A stretch of DNA of 10,635 nucleotides from Hyphomicrobiales bacterium (GTDB lineage: Bacteria; Pseudomonadota; Alphaproteobacteria; Rhizobiales; Xanthobacteraceae). The notes under the pieces are model-generated. The model was given only the letters and a program-made list of their open reading frames with translations. It was not told the origin of the DNA and made no database searches. A program made the translations under genes and the position numbers. The number at the start of each line of letters is the position of its first letter. The stretch's first letter is position 1. Positions 259 to 10,543 of this stretch are shown in pieces. Location: NCBI GenBank assembly GCA_021730825.1, contig JAKFYO010000372.1:1-10635 (forward strand), read 5' to 3'.

Positions 259-858
259 GTGACAAAATTGTTTCAAGAGCCGTCTGACGCCACGCCTCTC
301 ACACCAGTAGAGCGTGAAGGTTTAGTACAGAACTGGATTGCTCATCGTGAAGAGCTTAACGAAGCCGAACAAGAAAATATTGTTGCCGGTTCGGTCTGGG
401 CTCGACGACGCGTTAGCCGAGTTGAATTAACAGAAATACTGACTGATGATTTCGTAAAGGAACTACATCGGCGAATGTTCGCCGATGTCTGGCGCTGGGC
501 GGGCGTTTACCGCACGACCGAGCGAAATCTTGGAATTGCACCCAACTTAATCTCTCAGCGTGTGCCTCAGCATCTAGATGATGTCAGTTATTGGATAGAG
601 CATGCCATTTATGATCCAGACGAAATTGCTGTCCGGTTGCATCACGGCCTTGTTCAAATCCACCCATTCCCGAATGGAAACGGACGTCATACTCGCTTGT
701 TAGCAGACCTACTCGTTGAGCGAATGGGCGGCGAGGCGTTTACGTGGGGTAGTGGTGAGTTCTCTGCAGAAGGCGGCCTGCGAAATCGCTATATTGGGGC
801 TCTCAGAAGCGCAGATCAGCATCAAATAGAACCGCTCTTAAAATTTGCACGATCCTAA
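259..858 (+). CDS. Fic-domain protein, mobile mystery protein B (putative AMPylating toxin)
   Basis: The 199-residue product has an intact Fic core, 'HPFPNGNGR' at residues 135-143. This matches HPFx(D/N)GNGR, in which His135 is the catalytic base and the GNGR loop binds nucleotide phosphates. Fic enzymes usually transfer AMP from ATP to hydroxyl groups of target proteins. The segment 'VWRWAGVYRTTERNLGI' at 77-93 is typical of the mobile mystery protein B subgroup. Near the N-terminus, Glu39-Asn40 in 'EAEQEN' is a candidate for the inhibitory glutamate of self-restrained Fic proteins, but the usual Ser/Thr four positions earlier is Glu here. The start is GTG at 259, two bases after the upstream stop, with only a weak GGA at 249-251 as ribosome site, so translational coupling is likely. 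Low GC content and the partner gene point to recent acquisition. Family assignment is strong; the toxin role is inferred. Confidence 0.88.
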   Translation: MTKLFQEPSDATPLTPVEREGLVQNWIAHREELNEAEQENIVAGSVWARRRVSRVELTEILTDDFVKELHRRMFADVWRWAGVYRTTERNLGIAPNLISQRVPQHLDDVSYWIEHAIYDPDEIAVRLHHGLVQIHPFPNGNGRHTRLLADLLVERMGGEAFTWGSGEFSAEGGLRNRYIGALRSADQHQIEPLLKFARS

Positions 859-4229: not shown

Positions 4230-5741
4230 TTAGTTGTTGCCGTCTTCGAGCGCGACCGCTTCGCGCTTTCTGCGAAGTTGCGGAATGAGCGGCATCAGAA
4301 GCATAATCGCCGCAATCGCAAGACATATCGCCGAGATCGGCTTTTTGAAAAAGGTGGTGAGATCGCCGGCCGATATGATCAGCGCGGTACGCAACTTGTT
4401 TTCCATGATCGCGCCGAGCACGAAGGCGAGCACCAAAGGTGCCGCTTCATAGCCGAGCTTGCGTGTGAGATAGCCGATCAATCCGAATGCGAGCATCACG
4501 TAAAGATCGAACACATTGTTGCTGCTCGCGAACACGCCGATGACGGTAAACAAGAGGATCATCGGGAACAGAATGTTGTAGGGCAGGCGCAAGAGCTGCA
4601 CCCACATGCCGATCAGGGGCAGGTTCAAGACGAGCAGCATCACGTTGCCGATATACATGCTCGTAATCACGCCCCAGAACAGGTCGGGACGCTGCACCAT
4701 CAGAAGCGGACCGGGCTGGATGTTGTGAATGACGAAAGCGCCCAAGAGCAACGCCATCACCACATTCGGCGGGATACCGAGCGTCAAGAGCGGAATGAAC
4801 GCGCCGCCCGCCGCCGAATTGTTCGCGGCCTCGGGTCCCGCGACACCTTCGATCGCACCCTTGCCGAAACGCTCGGGCGTTTTCGAGATGCGCTTTTCGA
4901 GTGCATAGGAGGCGAACGCGGCGATCACTGCACCGCCGCCGGGAATGATGCCGAGGAAAAACCCAAGCACGGTACCGCGTCCGATCGGCCCGGCGCTGCG
5001 CTGCCAGTCTTCCTTGTTGGGTAGCAGATTGCTGATTTTCGTGTTCGTGATTGTGCGTTTAACGCCTTGCTCGATATTCGTGAGCACTTCGGCAACCCCG
5101 AACAGACCCATCACGACCGGCACGAGGCCGATGCCGTCGTAGAGTTCGATGCGATCGAAGGTGAGACGCGGCTGCGCGGTGATGCTGTCGAGACCGATCA
5201 GCCCAAGCACCACGCCCGCACTTGCCATCAGCAACGACTTCAGCATCGAGCCTTGCGTGAGGAAGGTCACGATGACGAGGCCGAGGATCATGAGGCTGAA
5301 CATTTCCGCGGGGCCGAATGCGACCGCGAAGCCCGCGAGAAACGGTGCAATGACCATAAGTCCGACGACGGCGGCAGTGCCTGCGATAAAGGAACCGAAG
5401 GCTGCGATCCCAAGCGCCGGCCCGGCCCGGCCCTGCTTCGCCATCTGATGTCCGTCGAGACAGGTGACGACGGAAGTTGCTTCGCCGGGAATGTTGACGA
5501 GGATCGAAGTGGTAGAGCCGCCATACATCGAGCCGTAATAGATACCGGCCATCATGATGATGCCGGATTCCGGCGTGCCGGAGAGCGTTACCGGCAACAA
5601 CAGCGACATCGCCGAAATCGGACCGATGCCGGGCAGGACGCCGACCAGCGTTCCGATGAAGACGCCGATGAAACAATACAGCAGATTGACCGGTGTCAGC
5701 GCGACGGCAAATCCATTGGCGACTTGTCCGAGCAGGTCCAT
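4230..5741 (-). CDS. tctA: Tripartite tricarboxylate transporter, large membrane subunit TctA
   Basis: The 503-residue product is the large integral membrane subunit of a TTT-family carrier, about 10-12 spans, which with TctB and the periplasmic binding protein imports carboxylates using the ion gradient. The N-terminal family signature '[21 protein letters not shown]' lies at residues 30-50 and is followed by '[15 protein letters not shown]' at 73-87 and '[19 protein letters not shown]' at 96-114. A second internal copy of the core, '[21 protein letters not shown]', is about midway, and '[17 protein letters not shown]' follows. The length is normal for TctA. The start is ATG at 5741, three bases after the tctB stop, so the two are translationally linked. 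The substrate is not determinable. Nothing looks broken. Confidence 0.95.
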
Positions 5742-5744
5742 CGT

Positions 5745-6221
5745 CTAGCCGATCTCGAATATGCCGGTCGGCAGTTGAATCTGTAAGAGCCGCTCCAGCA
5801 CCCACCAGACCAAAATCGGCGCGCCGAATGCGAGCGGTATCGCGATCGACCAACGCACCGGGTCGATTGCGCGCAACAGCACGAGCATGAGCGGAATAGT
5901 CGAGAGAAGAAATCCAAGACTGATGAACGCGTAGCCATAAAGACCGAAGGTCACGACTACGATCAGCGTCTTCACCCAGCGCGTGTCTGTCCATAACGCG
6001 CGGACCGATGGACCTTCATGCTTGATCGCCTGCACGGCAATGCCGAGCGAGAGTGCGGCCATCACGATGCCGAGCCAGAACATCATGAAGCCCATGCCCG
6101 GTGCGTTCACCGTGCCGAGACCGAGCCTGCGGCCCTGTTCGAGCACGAACAGGCTGATCGCAAACCAGATCGCACCGCCCCACAATTCGGCGTTGTTGAT
6201 CCGCAGGCCCGAGCTTTTCAT
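5745..6221 (-). CDS. tctB: Tripartite tricarboxylate transporter, small membrane subunit TctB
   Basis: This 158-residue protein has four hydrophobic segments, as expected for TctB, the small membrane subunit that joins TctA in the inner membrane. Visible landmarks are 'LWGGAIWFAISLFVLEQGRRLGLGT' near the N-terminus, with the typical motif 'NAPGMGFMMFWLGIVMAALSLGI' at about 39-61, and a C-terminal pair of spans including 'LGFLLSTIPLMLVLL'. TctB sequences are poorly conserved, so the call rests on length, topology and position between tctC and tctA. The start is ATG at 6221; the ribosome site upstream is weak, which may mean lower translation than tctC. A 12-bp hairpin lies 25-53 bases upstream of this start. 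The stop is three bases before the tctA ATG. Confidence 0.9.
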   Translation of the reverse strand: MKSSGLRINNAELWGGAIWFAISLFVLEQGRRLGLGTVNAPGMGFMMFWLGIVMAALSLGIAVQAIKHEGPSVRALWTDTRWVKTLIVVVTFGLYGYAFISLGFLLSTIPLMLVLLRAIDPVRWSIAIPLAFGAPILVWWVLERLLQIQLPTGIFEIG

Positions 6222-6246
6222 GAGATGATCGTCGTTCGGAAATGAA

Positions 6247-6274
6247 ATGGCCCCGCTGCAATCAGCGGGGCCAT
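6247..6274 (-). terminator. 12-bp perfect hairpin in the tctC-tctB gap (attenuator or mRNA-stability element)
   Basis: ATGGCCCCGCTG (6247-6258) and CAGCGGGGCCAT (6263-6274) are exact inverted copies around a CAAT loop. The element fills much of the 63-base gap between the tctC stop and the tctB start. On the transcribed strand the stem is followed by ATTTCATTTCC, which is T-rich but not a proper T-run. It therefore probably gives partial termination or protects the tctC message from 3' decay, so that the binding protein is made in excess over the membrane subunits, a common arrangement in binding-protein operons. The role is inferred. Confidence 0.6.
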
Positions 6275-6284
6275 GGATTGCGCG

Positions 6285-7250
6285 TCAGTCTTTTTTCTTG
6301 AGGCCGAGCATGTCGACGACTTTGCTCTCGGTCTCGGTCACTTCCTTCACGAACTTCACATAGTCGGCAGTGTTCTTGTAGTTCACGACCATGTCGTATT
6401 TAGCGAGTGTTGCTTTCACCTGCGGGTCATCGACCGCCTTTTTGAAAGCGTCGTGGATGGTAGCGACGATCTTCGGATCCATGCCTTTCGGGCCTGCGAT
6501 GCCGAACGGCGAGTCGAACACGAAGGGGTAGCCGAGTTGCCGCAGCGTCGGCACGTTCGGATAGTTCGGCGACGGGTTTGCGGTCCAGATCATCAAGAGA
6601 CGGAGCTGGCCGGAGTCGACCAGCGCCTTCCAGCCGCTCGATTCGACTTGCAGCATGGTGTGGCCGCCGAGCACGGCGGCGTTGGTCTCGGCACCGCCCT
6701 TGAACGGCACTTGCGTCACCTTGATGCCGTCGCGCGCCGCGATCTGTTCCATGCCGATATGCAGCGAAGTGCCTGAGCCTGGCGTTGCATAGGTCACCTT
6801 GCCGGGGTTCGCCTTGGCGAACTTCACGACGTCGGCCCAGGTCTTGAATTCGGAGTCGGCACGCACCGTGACACCGAAGGTGTACCCAGTGAGGTGTGCG
6901 ATGTAGGTAAAGTCTTTATCCGCGTCCCAGGTCGTCTTCTGCATCAACGGCAGGCGGAAGATCGTGATCGGAATCTGCGCGATGGTGTAGCCATCGGGCT
7001 TTGCCGTCGCTGCCATCTGTGCGGGACCGACCGTGCCGGAGCCGCCGGCGCGGTTATCGACCACGACGGGCTGGCCGAGATGTTTGCTCGCGGCTTCCGC
7101 AATCGCGCGCATTGCGATGTCGGTGGAGCCGCCCGCTGGCCAAGGCACAATCAGGCTTATTGGTTTGGTCGGAAAGTTTTGCGCCGAAGCCGGTACGGCG
7201 ATTACCGCGAAGATTGCGGCTGAAAGTAGTGCGAGCGCGGTGCGCTTCAT
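6285..7250 (-). CDS. tctC: Bug/TctC-family periplasmic substrate-binding protein
   Basis: The product has 321 residues. A clear signal peptide is present: 'MKR', a hydrophobic core at 5-20 and a likely cut after 'ASA' at residue 23, so the mature protein is periplasmic. The mature part shows the Bug-family pattern: 'FPTKPISLIVPWPAGGSTDI' at 26-45, 'VVVDNRAGGSGTVGPAQMA' at 62-80, 'KPDGYTI' at 84-90, 'FAKANPGKVTYATPGSGTSLH' at 144-164, 'VPFKGGAETNAAVLGGH' at 181-197 and 'ESSGWKALVDSGQLRLL' at 203-219. It would capture a carboxylate and pass it to TctAB encoded next to it. ATG at 7250 was chosen because it gives the signal peptide and has GGGGAG eight bases upstream. The ligand cannot be told from sequence. 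Confidence 0.93.
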   Translation of the reverse strand: MKRTALALLSAAIFAVIAVPASAQNFPTKPISLIVPWPAGGSTDIAMRAIAEAASKHLGQPVVVDNRAGGSGTVGPAQMAATAKPDGYTIAQIPITIFRLPLMQKTTWDADKDFTYIAHLTGYTFGVTVRADSEFKTWADVVKFAKANPGKVTYATPGSGTSLHIGMEQIAARDGIKVTQVPFKGGAETNAAVLGGHTMLQVESSGWKALVDSGQLRLLMIWTANPSPNYPNVPTLRQLGYPFVFDSPFGIAGPKGMDPKIVATIHDAFKKAVDDPQVKATLAKYDMVVNYKNTADYVKFVKEVTETESKVVDMLGLKKKD

Positions 7251-7279
7251 TTTGTTTTCTCCCCATGGTTTCGTCGTTC

Positions 7280-7342
7280 TTGCCAGCAGCGCTGCGCTGC
7301 AAATCGTCGTTCCGATTTTCCGCGAATGCTTTTGCTCGCGGA
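7280..7342 (-). promoter_or_regulatory. Two inverted repeats in the tctC leader
   Basis: Between the putative tctC promoter and its ATG there are two stem-loop candidates. TCCGCGA (7319-7325) and TCGCGGA (7336-7342) pair over a 10-base loop. TTGC (7280-7283) plus AGC (7285-7287) pair with GCT (7296-7298) plus GCAA (7299-7302) with one bulged C. If transcription starts near 7345, both lie in the 5' untranslated region. The first shares the TCCGC/GCGGA core with the half-sites at 7385-7423 and may instead be a further, weaker binding site. Neither resembles a riboswitch that I recognise. Confidence 0.35.
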
Positions 7343-7351
7343 GGAAAAACC

Positions 7352-7380
7352 ACTGCAACACTCAAGGGACGTAACGTCAA
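7352..7380 (-). promoter_or_regulatory. Candidate sigma-70-type promoter for tctCBA
   Basis: On the minus strand TTGACG (7380 down to 7375) matches the -35 consensus at five of six positions. After a 17-base spacer it is followed by TGCAGT (7357 down to 7352), which matches the -10 box at only three positions. Transcription would begin near 7345, giving a leader of about 95 bases before the tctC ATG. The operator array at 7385-7424 sits immediately upstream of the -35 box, the usual place for an activator or a repressor of the IclR type. The strong -35 with a poor -10 would fit an activated promoter. Confidence 0.45.
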
Positions 7381-7454: not shown

Positions 7455-8168
7455 TTAGCGGCGTCCGCGAAGAACCATCTGCTTGCCGCGCAACTCGAAT
7501 GACTCGAGGCGTTGCAGAAAGCTCATGCCTAAAAGGCTCATGCGAAGATCGCCCTGACGCACGATCAGCGCGGGTACACGCCGCTCGACGATGCTGCCGA
7601 TGCGGATTTGATCGAGCACGACCGCGGCCGCGAAGCTGCGGCCTTTCGCGGTTTCGATCGTGACGTCGTATTTCAGGAGATCGACCGGAATACCCGCCGC
7701 GCGTGCGGCCTCGATCGTCAGCACCACGCTGGAGGCGCCGGTGTCGATCAGCATCGGAAATTGCGAGCCGTTCACTTGAACCCGAACATTGAAATCACCG
7801 GACTGCGAGCGCTCCACGCGCACGCTGTTCGGAATGCTCGCGGTGATGTCCTGATCCGGTGTCACGACGGTAAAGATGCGGTCGACCACGCGCACGACTT
7901 CGTTGCGGTAGTTATAGCCGACGGCAAGCAGCGCCACGATCAACAGCCATAAGCCGACCGATTTCAGCTTTTCCTGAAAGCGGCCGTAGAACACCGAATA
8001 GAAACCGCCGCCGACCAAGAGCAGGAGCGCGGAGAAATAGACGAGGCTCGCAAACGCGTTGGTATCCATCGGGCCGACCGTGCCCTCGTCGTGACGCGAG
8101 ATCAGCACTATTACCGCAAGCACGAGGCCGGCGATGACGAGCCAGAGAAATTTGTCGTTACGGAACAT
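7455..8168 (-). CDS. Membrane-anchored retropepsin-like aspartic protease (clan AA, TIGR02281 type)
   Basis: The 237-residue product has three hydrophobic spans (about 7-23, 40-56 and 71-86) and then a soluble domain of about 130 residues that reads as a single-lobe, retropepsin-like aspartic protease. The catalytic triad motif is 'MLIDTGASSVVLT' at 139-151 with Asp142. The second family landmark is 'SLLGMSFLQRLESFEL' at 211-226, equivalent to the flap-end and hydrophobic-Gly segment. Enzymes of this type act as homodimers. A periplasmic location is likely from the odd number of spans with a basic N-terminus, but orientation is not proven. Alphaproteobacteria often carry such a protein (clan AA, TIGR02281 type); its substrate is unknown to me. 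The ATG at 8168 is six bases after the stop of the CobS-like gene, with TAAGAG as a partial ribosome site, so co-expression is very likely. Confidence 0.85.
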   Translation of the reverse strand: MFRNDKFLWLVIAGLVLAVIVLISRHDEGTVGPMDTNAFASLVYFSALLLLVGGGFYSVFYGRFQEKLKSVGLWLLIVALLAVGYNYRNEVVRVVDRIFTVVTPDQDITASIPNSVRVERSQSGDFNVRVQVNGSQFPMLIDTGASSVVLTIEAARAAGIPVDLLKYDVTIETAKGRSFAAAVVLDQIRIGSIVERRVPALIVRQGDLRMSLLGMSFLQRLESFELRGKQMVLRGRR

Positions 8169-8174
8169 GTTCTC

Positions 8175-8930
8175 TTACGGGGTTCTTACGAGCGCCAATA
8201 CGGCGAGGAGGGTTGCGACTTCGGCGGCTTTCCCGGCCGCCGCCGCGCAGTCAGGCACGTCGTCTTTGTTCTGGTTACGCGCGATGGCGACGACGATGAC
8301 GAAAGCGGCCAGTGCCGCAACCAAGGCTGCCGCCGTCGGCCCGATGCGAAATACGGGAAGCAGCAGCGCGGTGCCGATCACGATGGTGACGAGCATCAGG
8401 CCTTGCAATGCCGCGCCGTTCGAGGGCCGCGCGGTTTCTCCGATTTCCTCAACCGGACGCGCGGGCTGCGTCAGGCGAAAGGCGATAGAGGCAGTCGAGC
8501 TGAAAATCACGGCGGCAACGAGGACGAGTGCCGCGCTCGGCGCGTGGTAGAAAATCAAACCTTCGATCACCGCTACTTCAACGAGAAGCAGCAGTATGAG
8601 CGCTGCAGTCCCGGTTCCGCTCGCACCGGCAAGACTGTCGCCTGCGCGCACGGTGCCGCTCTCCAGTCGTGCGCCGCGCAGTGCCGCGAGCGTGAGTACG
8701 GTTGCGGCTGCAATCGCGAAAGGCGGCAGCCACATATTCCAGAACAAGAGCAACGCGCCGCCCGCGATGACACCCGTGATCGCGGCGGCGACCGGTGCCG
8801 CATAGGCGCCAGCACCGGGGCCGGTCGTGACCGGCTCGCCGTCTTCGTTCACGCGTGCCGCGTTGCCGAACGGGAGCACCGTTTCGTCGCGGAGCCATTT
8901 CAGCGTGTCATTCACGAAGGGCGGTAACAT
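8175..8930 (-). CDS. Degenerate cobalamin synthase (CobS)-like membrane protein
   Basis: The 251-residue, very hydrophobic protein aligns by eye with CobS (adenosylcobinamide-GDP ribazoletransferase) along its whole length. 'MLPPFVNDTLKWL' (1-13) matches the CobS start, 'APVAAAITGVIAGGALLL' (45-62) the first span, 'TARPSNGAALQGLMLV' (166-181) and 'LLPVFRIG' (190-197) the middle, and 'AAEVATLLAVLALV' (235-248) the usual C-terminus. The active-site signature HEDGLADxxDG is replaced by 'LESGTVRAGDS' (89-99), keeping only Glu90, Gly92 and Asp98. The DSRIGTYG segment is reduced to 'SGTGTAA' (104-110), with the roughly 15-residue loop before it missing. The C-terminal GGxTGDxLGA is replaced by 'RNQNKDDVPDC' (218-228). 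It is therefore probably a non-catalytic relative. The start at ATG 8930 has GGAAAG upstream; a GTG at 8987 overlapping the kinase stop is possible but adds non-family residues. Confidence 0.6.
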   Translation of the reverse strand: MLPPFVNDTLKWLRDETVLPFGNAARVNEDGEPVTTGPGAGAYAAPVAAAITGVIAGGALLLFWNMWLPPFAIAAATVLTLAALRGARLESGTVRAGDSLAGASGTGTAALILLLLVEVAVIEGLIFYHAPSAALVLVAAVIFSSTASIAFRLTQPARPVEEIGETARPSNGAALQGLMLVTIVIGTALLLPVFRIGPTAAALVAALAAFVIVVAIARNQNKDDVPDCAAAAGKAAEVATLLAVLALVRTP

Positions 8931-8983: not shown

Positions 8984-10543
8984 TCACGCGCGGACAGGGG
9001 CGGTCTGCGCGGTCGTCTGGGGCTGCTTCGGTTGCAGCGGGCCGGCATCCGACACGGGTGCGAGTGCCGCCATAACTCGCTCAGGCGGCAAAGTGACGAT
9101 GACTTCGGTGCCTTCGCGGAGTTTCGAGCGCAGCGTGAAGGTGCCGCCGTGAAGGTCGATCAGTCCCTTCACGATCGGCAAACCGAGACCCGCGCCTTGC
9201 TCCGCGGTCTTGATCGCATTCGAGCCTTGGCCGAAGGACGCCATGACAATCGGGATTTCATCTTCGGGAATGCCGGGACCGGTATCGCGCACCGAAAGGT
9301 ACTGTCCGCCGGAAGCGGTCCAGCCGACCTTGGTGAAAACCTCGCCGCCCTGCGGCGTGAACTTGATTGCGTTTGAAAGCAGATTGAGCGTGACCTGACG
9401 CACCGCGCGCTCATCCGCCCAGATTTTCGGCAGACCGGATTCGAACAGCGTATGCAGCGTGATTCCGCGGTTGGTCGCGCGCATCTTCATCAGATACGAG
9501 CAGTCGTCGGCAATTCCGACCAGGCTAACCGGCTCTTCGTTGAGTTCGTAGCGCCCGGCTTCGATGCGCGACAGATCGAGAATCTCGTTGATAAGGTTCA
9601 GGAGATGCCCGCCGGATTCGTGAATATCGCCGGCATATTCTTTATATGCAGGCACGGCGTGGCCGCCGAGCACTTCGTTCTTCATCACTTCCGAGAAGCC
9701 GAGGATCGCGTTCAAGGGCGTGCGCAACTCATGCGACATCTGCGCGAGAAAGCGGGACTTCGCGAGGTTCGCGGCTTCCGCGCGGCGCGCGGCTTCCTCT
9801 GACTTCGCTTTCGACTGTTCGAGCTCGCCGATCAGCGTGTCGAGTTGCGCGCGCGCTTCCAGCGCCGACACCGCGGCGATGTGCAGGCGGCCTGCGACCA
9901 TCACGAAATAGGCCTCCGCGCCGACCGTCAGAATTGCCAGCACCACGTCCTGCGGCGTGCCGCGCAGGAGATAGTGCAGCGTGACGACACCGGCCACCGG
10001 AACGGTTGCCGCATAGACAGCGCTCGGAATGCTCGCGGCCAGCATCGAGAACACGACTACCACGAGCAGCATCGCAAACAGCGAGAAGTCGCCGGCACCC
10101 TGCGCGCCGAGGCCAACAAGTACGTTGACGATCAAGACCCAGCTCACGCCGAAGATCAGATCGAACATCGTGAACAGCACGCGATAGCGCTGCATCAGTG
10201 CCGGGCTTGCGGGGGCGGTCAGAAAGCGGCGGCAGGCCGCGACATTCAGCGAGTGGATCGTGAGCGCGATCATGGTCCAGAGGATTGCGCCGAGGCCGCC
10301 GGTCCACAGCGAAGAAGCGATGCCGACCAGCGAGATCAGCATGAACAGCGCGACCGACGCGCCTATGCGGTGCTCCGCGTAAAGACGCAGGAGTTCGTAG
10401 TCGAAAGCAGGCTTTACGCCGGAAGTGGAAGTGAGAATGTCGCGCGCGTCGCGGACGCTGCGATTGAGCATAAGCCGCCGCTCGTGTGCAACGCGGGCGG
10501 CATCGGCCGCTGACTCGTCCCCGCGAGCTCTATAGCTCATCAT
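8984..10543 (-). CDS. Six-span membrane sensor histidine kinase (PleC/DivJ-like H-box)
   Basis: The 519-residue product has about 55 cytoplasmic N-terminal residues, then six hydrophobic spans between about 60 and 217, then a coiled-coil linker (224-265, rich in Ala, Glu and Arg), then a complete kinase core. The H-box is 'SHELRTPLNAILGFSEVM' at 270-287 with phospho-acceptor His271; the N-box is 'NLLSNAIKF' at 387-395; G1 is 'DTGPGI' at 420-425; G2 is 'GAGLGLPIVKGL' at 450-461. The H-box style is that of the alphaproteobacterial PleC/DivJ/PdhS group, though that may only reflect shared ancestry. There is no PAS or periplasmic domain, so the stimulus is probably sensed in the membrane. The C-terminal 30 residues are Pro/Gln/Ala-rich and probably disordered. 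No response regulator is adjacent. The start is ATG at 10543; Met25 is an alternative. It is followed by the CobS-like gene on the same strand. Confidence 0.92.
   Translation of the reverse strand: MMSYRARGDESAADAARVAHERRLMLNRSVRDARDILTSTSGVKPAFDYELLRLYAEHRIGASVALFMLISLVGIASSLWTGGLGAILWTMIALTIHSLNVAACRRFLTAPASPALMQRYRVLFTMFDLIFGVSWVLIVNVLVGLGAQGAGDFSLFAMLLVVVVFSMLAASIPSAVYAATVPVAGVVTLHYLLRGTPQDVVLAILTVGAEAYFVMVAGRLHIAAVSALEARAQLDTLIGELEQSKAKSEEAARRAEAANLAKSRFLAQMSHELRTPLNAILGFSEVMKNEVLGGHAVPAYKEYAGDIHESGGHLLNLINEILDLSRIEAGRYELNEEPVSLVGIADDCSYLMKMRATNRGITLHTLFESGLPKIWADERAVRQVTLNLLSNAIKFTPQGGEVFTKVGWTASGGQYLSVRDTGPGIPEDEIPIVMASFGQGSNAIKTAEQGAGLGLPIVKGLIDLHGGTFTLRSKLREGTEVIVTLPPERVMAALAPVSDAGPLQPKQPQTTAQTAPVRA

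What the first reader, a model, noticed from the sequence alone, without database searches (positions are those of the whole stretch)
8175..8930. Apparent CobS pseudoenzyme: full-length cobalamin-synthase fold with its catalytic motifs lost
Seen in the sequence: the N-terminus, span pattern, middle motif and C-terminus follow CobS, while HEDGLAD is now LESGTVR, the DSRIGTYG region has lost its Asp and Arg together with the loop before it, and GGxTGD is gone. The open frame has no stops and the hydrophobic segments are well kept, which suggests selection on a new role rather than decay. Established: CobS needs the acidic residues for Mg-dependent ribazole transfer. Inference: the protein may bind a corrinoid-like or polyprenyl-like ligand or act as a membrane scaffold for the kinase or protease encoded beside it.
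Basis: partly seen in the sequence, partly recalled or inferred. Interest (0 to 1): 0.72.

Follow-up and report, generated by a model that had tools for sequence, protein, structure and literature searches.

The report
Vitamin B12 enzyme turned non-enzyme protein
A membrane protein descended from an enzyme of vitamin B12 assembly has lost key active-site residues in bacteria that seem no longer to make B12, yet selection still keeps it intact, so it probably does a different, still unknown job.

Summary
Window 8175-8930 (-) encodes a 251-aa membrane protein descended from the B12 synthase CobS: Pfam misses it, but profile comparison with 17 canonical CobS proteins gives 99.1% probability, E 1.4e-18. 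It is no local accident: 101 homologue clusters keep 3-7 of 19 motif residues, against 17-19 in 49 canonical rows, and form one clade. Two aspartates that Salmonella CobS needs are gone (D82 to Ser, D86 to Arg); three acidic positions remain (E109, D117, D246). Selection is purifying: dN/dS 0.115 and 0.132 in the two close species pairs. Canonical cobS, cobT, cobD and cobU were found in 0 of 8 genomes of the genus, metH in 7 of 8. The kinase/protease neighbourhood is inherited from canonical cobS, so it says little about partners; one genome of the genus and two of a sister genus lack the gene. Best reading: an exapted CobS without ribazole transfer, acting as a membrane docking protein, partner unknown.

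The parts
8175..8930 (-). CobS-derived protein without the catalytic motifs (pCobS), 251 aa, stop included
   Evidence: hhalign to canonical CobS E 1.4e-18; motif counts; dN/dS
8883..8921 (-). N-terminal helix (residues 23-35 counted from the GTG), best conserved helix, with W31, R33, E35
   Evidence: AlphaFold helix 23-35; mean column identity 0.90 over 54 rows; W31 in no canonical row and in 96% of the other motif-less rows
8634..8675 (-). Remnant of the HxDxxxDxxD loop (residues 105-118): E109 and D117 kept, D82 to Ser, D86 to Arg114
   Evidence: alignment and column counts; role of the motif from PMC8092220
8616..8627 (-). Place where the DSR-bearing loop of CobS is deleted (about residues 121-124)
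   Evidence: alignments; the canonical model has a short helix 105-113 there that the pCobS model lacks
8229..8267 (-). Remnant of the GGxTGD loop (residues 241-253): D246 kept, K253 new
   Evidence: column counts
8984..10543 (-). Histidine kinase (HisKA, HATPase_c), upstream neighbour, 53 bp before the ATG of pCobS
   Evidence: Pfam; homologues at E <= 1e-150 in 313 of 391 family genomes
7455..8168 (-). TIGR02281 clan AA aspartic protease, downstream neighbour, 6 bp after the pCobS stop
   Evidence: NCBIfam TIGR02281 E 1.9e-38, over its cut-off; beside canonical cobS too in relatives

Best explanation
The gene is an in-place descendant of cobS that lost ribazole transfer in an ancestor that gave up cobalamin assembly and was then kept, under purifying selection, for a job that does not need that reaction. 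The job I think most likely is membrane docking: the polytopic fold and an N-terminal helix are kept, and the loops that are cytoplasmic by homology with Salmonella CobS carry newly fixed polar residues (R114, R171, Q174, Q195, K253; W31 in the N-terminal helix) as a binding face for a protein partner. The neighbouring kinase and protease are candidates by place only. Computed here: ancestry, motif loss, selection, absence of the other late cob genes tested. Inferred: loss of activity (from published Salmonella variants), docking, the partner.
For: Homology: hhalign 99.1%, E 1.4e-18, with g32/g47 proteins as a bridge (E 2.2e-34 and 1.2e-29). Same residues lost throughout: D82 kept in 0 of 112 motif-less rows. 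One clade: 69 of 69 motif-less rows, 100/100; 26 of 26 at SH-aLRT 99 without motif columns. Selection: dN/dS 0.115 and 0.132; omega = 1 costs 243 lnL units over seven species; close canonical CobS pairs of genus g41 give 0.09-0.13. New constraint rather than decay: 53 columns fixed (>= 95%) in the subfamily that carry the same residue in under half of canonical rows; Q195 and W31 are in no canonical row but in 98% and 96% of the other motif-less rows. Late pathway gone: cobT and cobD 0 of 11, cobU 0 of 12, controls 7 of 7 each. Published: inactive CobS D82A still affects the membrane when overproduced, and CobS is proposed to anchor a complex (PMC8749415, passages).
Against: No partner, ligand or expression is shown. 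The gene is missing from G152 of the same genus and from G058 and G015 of genus g16, which keep kinase and protease, so it is not indispensable. E109, D117 and D246 persist, which a pure scaffold would not need. dN/dS is 3-4 times that of the kinase and about twice that of the protease in the same pairs; wider pCobS pairs give 0.20-0.28 at dS about 1 or more, and canonical g14 pairs 0.25-0.27. Long branches could help to group the motif-less rows, and two trees disagree on the order of the genera within the clade.
Confidence: 0.5

Rival explanations
1. An enzyme with changed chemistry: the old cytoplasmic pocket, with E109, D117 and D246 plus new R114, R171 and K253, still binds a metal and a phosphorylated substrate and transfers something other than ribazole.
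For: The three acidic positions are kept in 59-60 of 60 rows of the subfamily, and new charged residues are fixed; the constraint is enzyme-like.
Against: D82 and D86, essential in Salmonella (PMC8092220), and the DSR loop are lost; in the g32/g47 relatives D89 is D in 9 of 52 rows and D229 in 2 of 52, while W31 and Q195 are shared, so the acidic set is not what the clade has in common.
Confidence: 0.15
2. A corrinoid handler or importer part in B12-dependent bacteria: the protein binds cobalamin or cobinamide at the inner membrane and helps uptake or sensing.
For: B12 appears to be used and imported: MetH in 9 of 11 and one cobalamin riboswitch in 9 of 11 g1/g32/g47 genomes, with a BtuB-like receptor behind the riboswitch in the two loci annotated and no importer gene among 13 ORFs scanned there. 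G023 and G063 have a single FecCD permease each, which scores below both BtuC cut-offs in G023; in G104 the ATPase next to its counterpart passes the heme cut-off.
Against: G152 lacks pCobS yet has MetH and the riboswitch. Genus g16 lacks both pCobS and FecCD, though its MetH was not tested. The BtuC-like permease of G023 may still carry B12.
Confidence: 0.1
3. A slowly decaying relic that is still open by inertia or because the frame links translation of kinase and protease.
For: Clean absence in three genomes; faster evolution than both neighbours; short gaps of 53 and 6 bp.
Against: omega = 1 is rejected by 243 lnL units; differences fall 24/8/80 and 25/12/80 on codon positions 1, 2, 3 in the two closest pairs; no internal stop in the 9 motif-less matches, nor in the G109 and G047 copies; new residues fixed across genera.
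Confidence: 0.12
4. It is still a working CobS that tolerates the changed motifs.
For: Fold and three acidic positions kept.
Against: D82 and D86 replaced; cobT, cobD and cobU not found in the clade's genomes tested; no row of intermediate motif count among 161.
Confidence: 0.03

Closest known systems
CobS, adenosylcobinamide-GDP ribazoletransferase (PF02654; NCBIfam NF001276)
   Same: Sequence ancestry over 242 aligned columns, order of the long helices in the predicted models, gene place beside the TIGR02281 protease in 6 of 13 canonical loci examined
   Different: H80, D82, D86, the DSR loop and most of GGxTGD are lost; the host genus lacks the other late cob genes tested; no Pfam match for the window protein
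Inactive Salmonella CobS D82A variant (PMC8749415, PMC8092220; passages and one section read)
   Same: D82 missing; membrane protein without ribazole transfer, which still had membrane effects in E. coli when overproduced
   Different: A laboratory point variant, whereas this is a natural lineage with many changed positions and its own conserved residues
Pseudoenzymes in general, e.g. inactive metallopeptidase homologues (PMC11266112; start of abstract seen in listing)
   Same: Enzyme fold kept, catalytic residues lost, sequence still constrained
   Different: No active CobS was found in the genus that it could regulate, and no partner is known

Membership tests
CobS ribazoletransferase (PF02654) | Sequence match over the Pfam curated cut-off | tested here: not met
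   No family at E 1 for the window protein; PF02654 touched by 1 of 54 A1 members, best E 0.001
CobS ribazoletransferase (PF02654) | Common ancestry with CobS | tested here: met
   hhalign 99.1%, E 1.4e-18; A1 profile hits true cobS genes; same gene place
CobS ribazoletransferase (PF02654) | HxDxxxDxxD with D82, D86 and D89 (Salmonella numbering) | tested here: not met
   LESGTVRAGD: D82 to S, D86 to R, D89 kept
CobS ribazoletransferase (PF02654) | GxxGDxxG with D229 | tested here: not met
   DDVPDCAA: only the Asp is kept
CobS ribazoletransferase (PF02654) | Genome context able to supply substrates (cobU, cobT, cobD) | tested here: not met
   0 of 8 genomes of the genus for each; controls 7 of 7
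CobS ribazoletransferase (PF02654) | Enzyme activity | not testable with these tools
   Needs complementation or an assay
Pseudoenzyme (works like) | Residues essential for the parent reaction lost in the whole subfamily | tested here: met
   D82 kept in 0 of 60 and D86 in 0 of 60 rows of the subfamily
Pseudoenzyme (works like) | Purifying selection | tested here: met
   dN/dS 0.115 and 0.132; omega = 1 costs 243 lnL units
Pseudoenzyme (works like) | A non-catalytic function | not testable with these tools
   No phenotype or partner data
Pseudogene or decaying relic | Stops, frameshifts or relaxed constraint | tested here: not met
   No stop inside the 9 motif-less matches nor the G109 and G047 copies; low dN/dS. 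Against: the gene is absent from three genomes

The most novel reading that the evidence does not exclude
A bacterial lineage turned the membrane synthase of B12 assembly into a new kind of membrane protein that reuses the old cytoplasmic pocket, now with E109, D117 and D246 plus newly fixed Arg, Gln and Lys, to bind a corrinoid- or nucleotide-type ligand and to pass that signal to the histidine kinase or aspartic protease encoded in the same gene row.
Probability: 0.12. Interest if true: 0.8.

Novelty: new variant of a known kind. Interest (0 to 1): 0.55.

Why it matters
Why the last steps of cobamide assembly sit at the membrane is called unanswered in PMC8092220 (passage). A natural CobS lineage freed from catalysis, yet about as constrained in close pairs as the enzyme in close pairs of genus g41, gives a direct way to ask what the CobS fold does apart from catalysis. 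It is also a practical warning: source names of the 53 close homologues and 15 of the 48 further motif-less ones CobS, and 23 of those 48 carry a precomputed PF02654 label, so B12-producer predictions that rest on a cobS name or domain can be wrong for this lineage.

Tried and rejected

Sequence error or local decay: rejected, since 53 close homologues from many contigs show the same state. Antisense coding: a plus-strand ORF 8091-8927 overlaps, but differences between the two closest species fall 24/8/80 on the codon positions of the minus-strand frame. A partnership inferred from neighbours: set aside, because the neighbours are ancestral. Riboswitch control: no Rfam match in the window.

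Relatives outside the clade: an order-wide search matched 322 of 397 genomes; of the 30 best, 29 have intact motifs by a pattern test and the exception is the window itself; the other 292 were not inspected, and that sample listed no other member of the genus. The A1 profile search did not list the motif-less copies of G109 and G047, which were found by the kinase locus and the PF02654 search. Of further g32 genomes, the contig of G126 ends inside the kinase and G090 gave no kinase match at E 1e-150, so their state is unknown. Paper searches; 'cobalamin synthase' with 'pseudoenzyme' found 0 papers; only open-access papers are held.

Full report
What is there. On the minus strand, 8984-10543 encodes a histidine kinase, 8175-8930 the protein in question (pCobS) and 7455-8168 a TIGR02281 aspartic protease. 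The gaps are 53 and 6 bp, so one transcript is plausible but not shown. No tRNA and no Rfam family is found in the window. The window lies in a draft genome, G000, estimated 72.8% complete. Names in the records of homologues point to Rhizobiales, Xanthobacteraceae or Bradyrhizobiaceae.

Is it CobS? Pfam finds nothing in the window protein at E 1 and the NCBIfam CobS model gives E 2.7e-4, far below its cut-off. With 53 homologues aligned (A1), the profile hits true cobS genes of relatives, for example G082 at 3.2e-18, where PF02654 gives 3.6e-51. Profile-profile comparison with 17 canonical CobS proteins gives 99.1%, E 1.4e-18 over 242 columns. Four proteins of genera g32 and g47 (A3) bridge the gap: E 2.2e-34 to canonical CobS and 1.2e-29 to A1; all four match PF02654 at E <= 0.1, best 1.8e-8. 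AlphaFold models of pCobS (pLDDT 86.4, pTM 0.83) and of a canonical CobS (95.1, 0.92) show the same order of long helices; the canonical one has two short helices more. They were not superposed.

What was lost. Salmonella CobS needs D82, D86 and D89 of H80xDxxxDxxD89 and D229 of GxxGDxxG: each Ala variant failed to grow on cobinamide plus DMB, whereas H80A was milder (PMC8092220; section 13 read, other passages seen). In pCobS D82 is Ser and D86 is Arg, and the loop with DSR is deleted; the positions of D89, D229 and the Glu after H80 remain as D117, D246 and E109. Over 19 motif residues in an alignment of 161 rows, the 49 canonical rows keep 17-19, the 53 A1 proteins 5-7, and the 48 further motif-less proteins (two of them incomplete at the end) 3-7; the 11 genome copies keep 4-7. 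Nothing lies between. D82 is missing in 112 of 112 motif-less rows, some of which are one protein seen twice; the Glu is kept in 109 of 112.

One event, probably. In a tree of 118 rows the 69 motif-less rows are one side of a branch with 100/100 support; with motif columns removed, a quick tree of 54 rows still gives SH-aLRT 99. Long branches could inflate this, and the order of the genera inside the clade differs between trees. The kinase tree of 20 rows unites g1, g16, g32 and g47 at 100/100.

Where it sits. Kinase, pCobS and protease are adjacent in 6 of 6 further genomes of the genus whose locus was fetched, in G032, G069 and G109 (g32) and in G047 (g47). The protease also lies beside canonical cobS in 6 of 13 canonical loci examined, one of them by a partial match. 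In G003 the order is kinase, cobT on the other strand, cobS, protease. The simplest reading is that cobT was lost and cobS changed in place, so the neighbourhood is inherited. In G152 (same genus) and in G058 and G015 (g16) kinase and protease lie 13-38 bp apart by their matches, with no CobS-like match between; in G152 the junction was read directly and 12 bp separate the kinase stop and the protease ATG. So the gene is sometimes dispensable.

Metabolic setting. PF02654 is found in 0 of 8 genomes of the genus and in 107 of 198 of the family, one of these being the motif-less g47 copy. cobT and cobD: 0 of 11 genomes of g1, g32 and g47; cobU: 0 of 12; controls 7 of 7 each; G058 of g16 has a cobU match below the cut-off. 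Four of the g1 genomes are 99-100% complete, so incompleteness does not explain this. Other cob genes were not searched. MetH is present in 9 of 11 and one cobalamin riboswitch in 9 of 11 (missing from G137 and G047, and from G000 and G137, respectively), against 2-6 riboswitches in the controls. In the two loci annotated, the riboswitch lies before a BtuB-like receptor that scores below NCBIfam's cut-off. These bacteria look like B12 users that import it.

Selection. For the two closest species pairs dN/dS is 0.115 (dS 0.53) and 0.132 (dS 0.54); fixing omega at 1 costs 243 log-likelihood units over seven species. Wider pairs give 0.20-0.28, but dS there is about 1 or more. Canonical CobS gives 0.09-0.13 within genus g41, 0.25-0.27 within g14 and 0.37-0.50 between the two. 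The neighbours are more constrained: kinase 0.03, protease 0.05-0.07 in the same close pairs. Over 54 rows the N-terminal helix is the best conserved (mean identity 0.90), and the linker 36-60 varies most among the regions tabulated (0.56). 53 columns are at least 95% fixed in the subfamily but carry that residue in under half of canonical rows; W31 and Q195, in no canonical row, are also in 96% and 98% of the other motif-less rows. That is the pattern of a new constraint, not of decay.

How it may work. Published work shows that an inactive CobS (D82A) still dissipates the proton motive force in E. coli when overproduced, and proposes that CobS anchors a membrane complex (PMC8749415; passages). 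I therefore favour a docking role that kept the fold and rebuilt the loops that are cytoplasmic by homology. The partner is unknown; kinase and protease are candidates by place only. A reused pocket with new chemistry, or corrinoid handling, stays possible because E109, D117 and D246 persist.

Range and novelty. An order-wide search matched 322 of 397 genomes; of the 30 best, 29 have intact motifs and the exception is the window. The search for 'cobalamin synthase' with 'pseudoenzyme' found 0 papers, and the listings showed no paper on such a protein by title or start of abstract. This covers an open-access library only.

Noticed in passing
proteins P0001-P0101: Source names of these 101 motif-less proteins CobS (cobalamin synthase or ribazoletransferase), and 23 of the 48 further ones carry PF02654, although the essential aspartates are lost.
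   Followed up: partly
L143 (G023), L146 (G032); FecCD search: The only cobalamin riboswitch of these genomes precedes a BtuB-like receptor without an importer gene among the ORFs scanned, and G047, G058 and G015 have no FecCD permease match at all, so the inner-membrane B12 importer is unclear.
   Followed up: partly
genus g28 genomes: All ten g28 genomes listed carry two canonical PF02654 matches, unlike the single copy usual in the family.
   Followed up: no
G003:C18:11823-12161: A CobS fragment (PF02654 positions 42-145) with one TAG stop lies near a second cobT on the same contig; the genome is estimated 6% contaminated.
   Followed up: no
window 4230-7361: A tripartite tricarboxylate transporter set (TctA, TctB, TctC) on the minus strand.
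   Followed up: no
window 259-858: A Fic/DOC family protein (Pfam E 8.5e-15) with the stretch HPFPNGNGRHTR.
   Followed up: no
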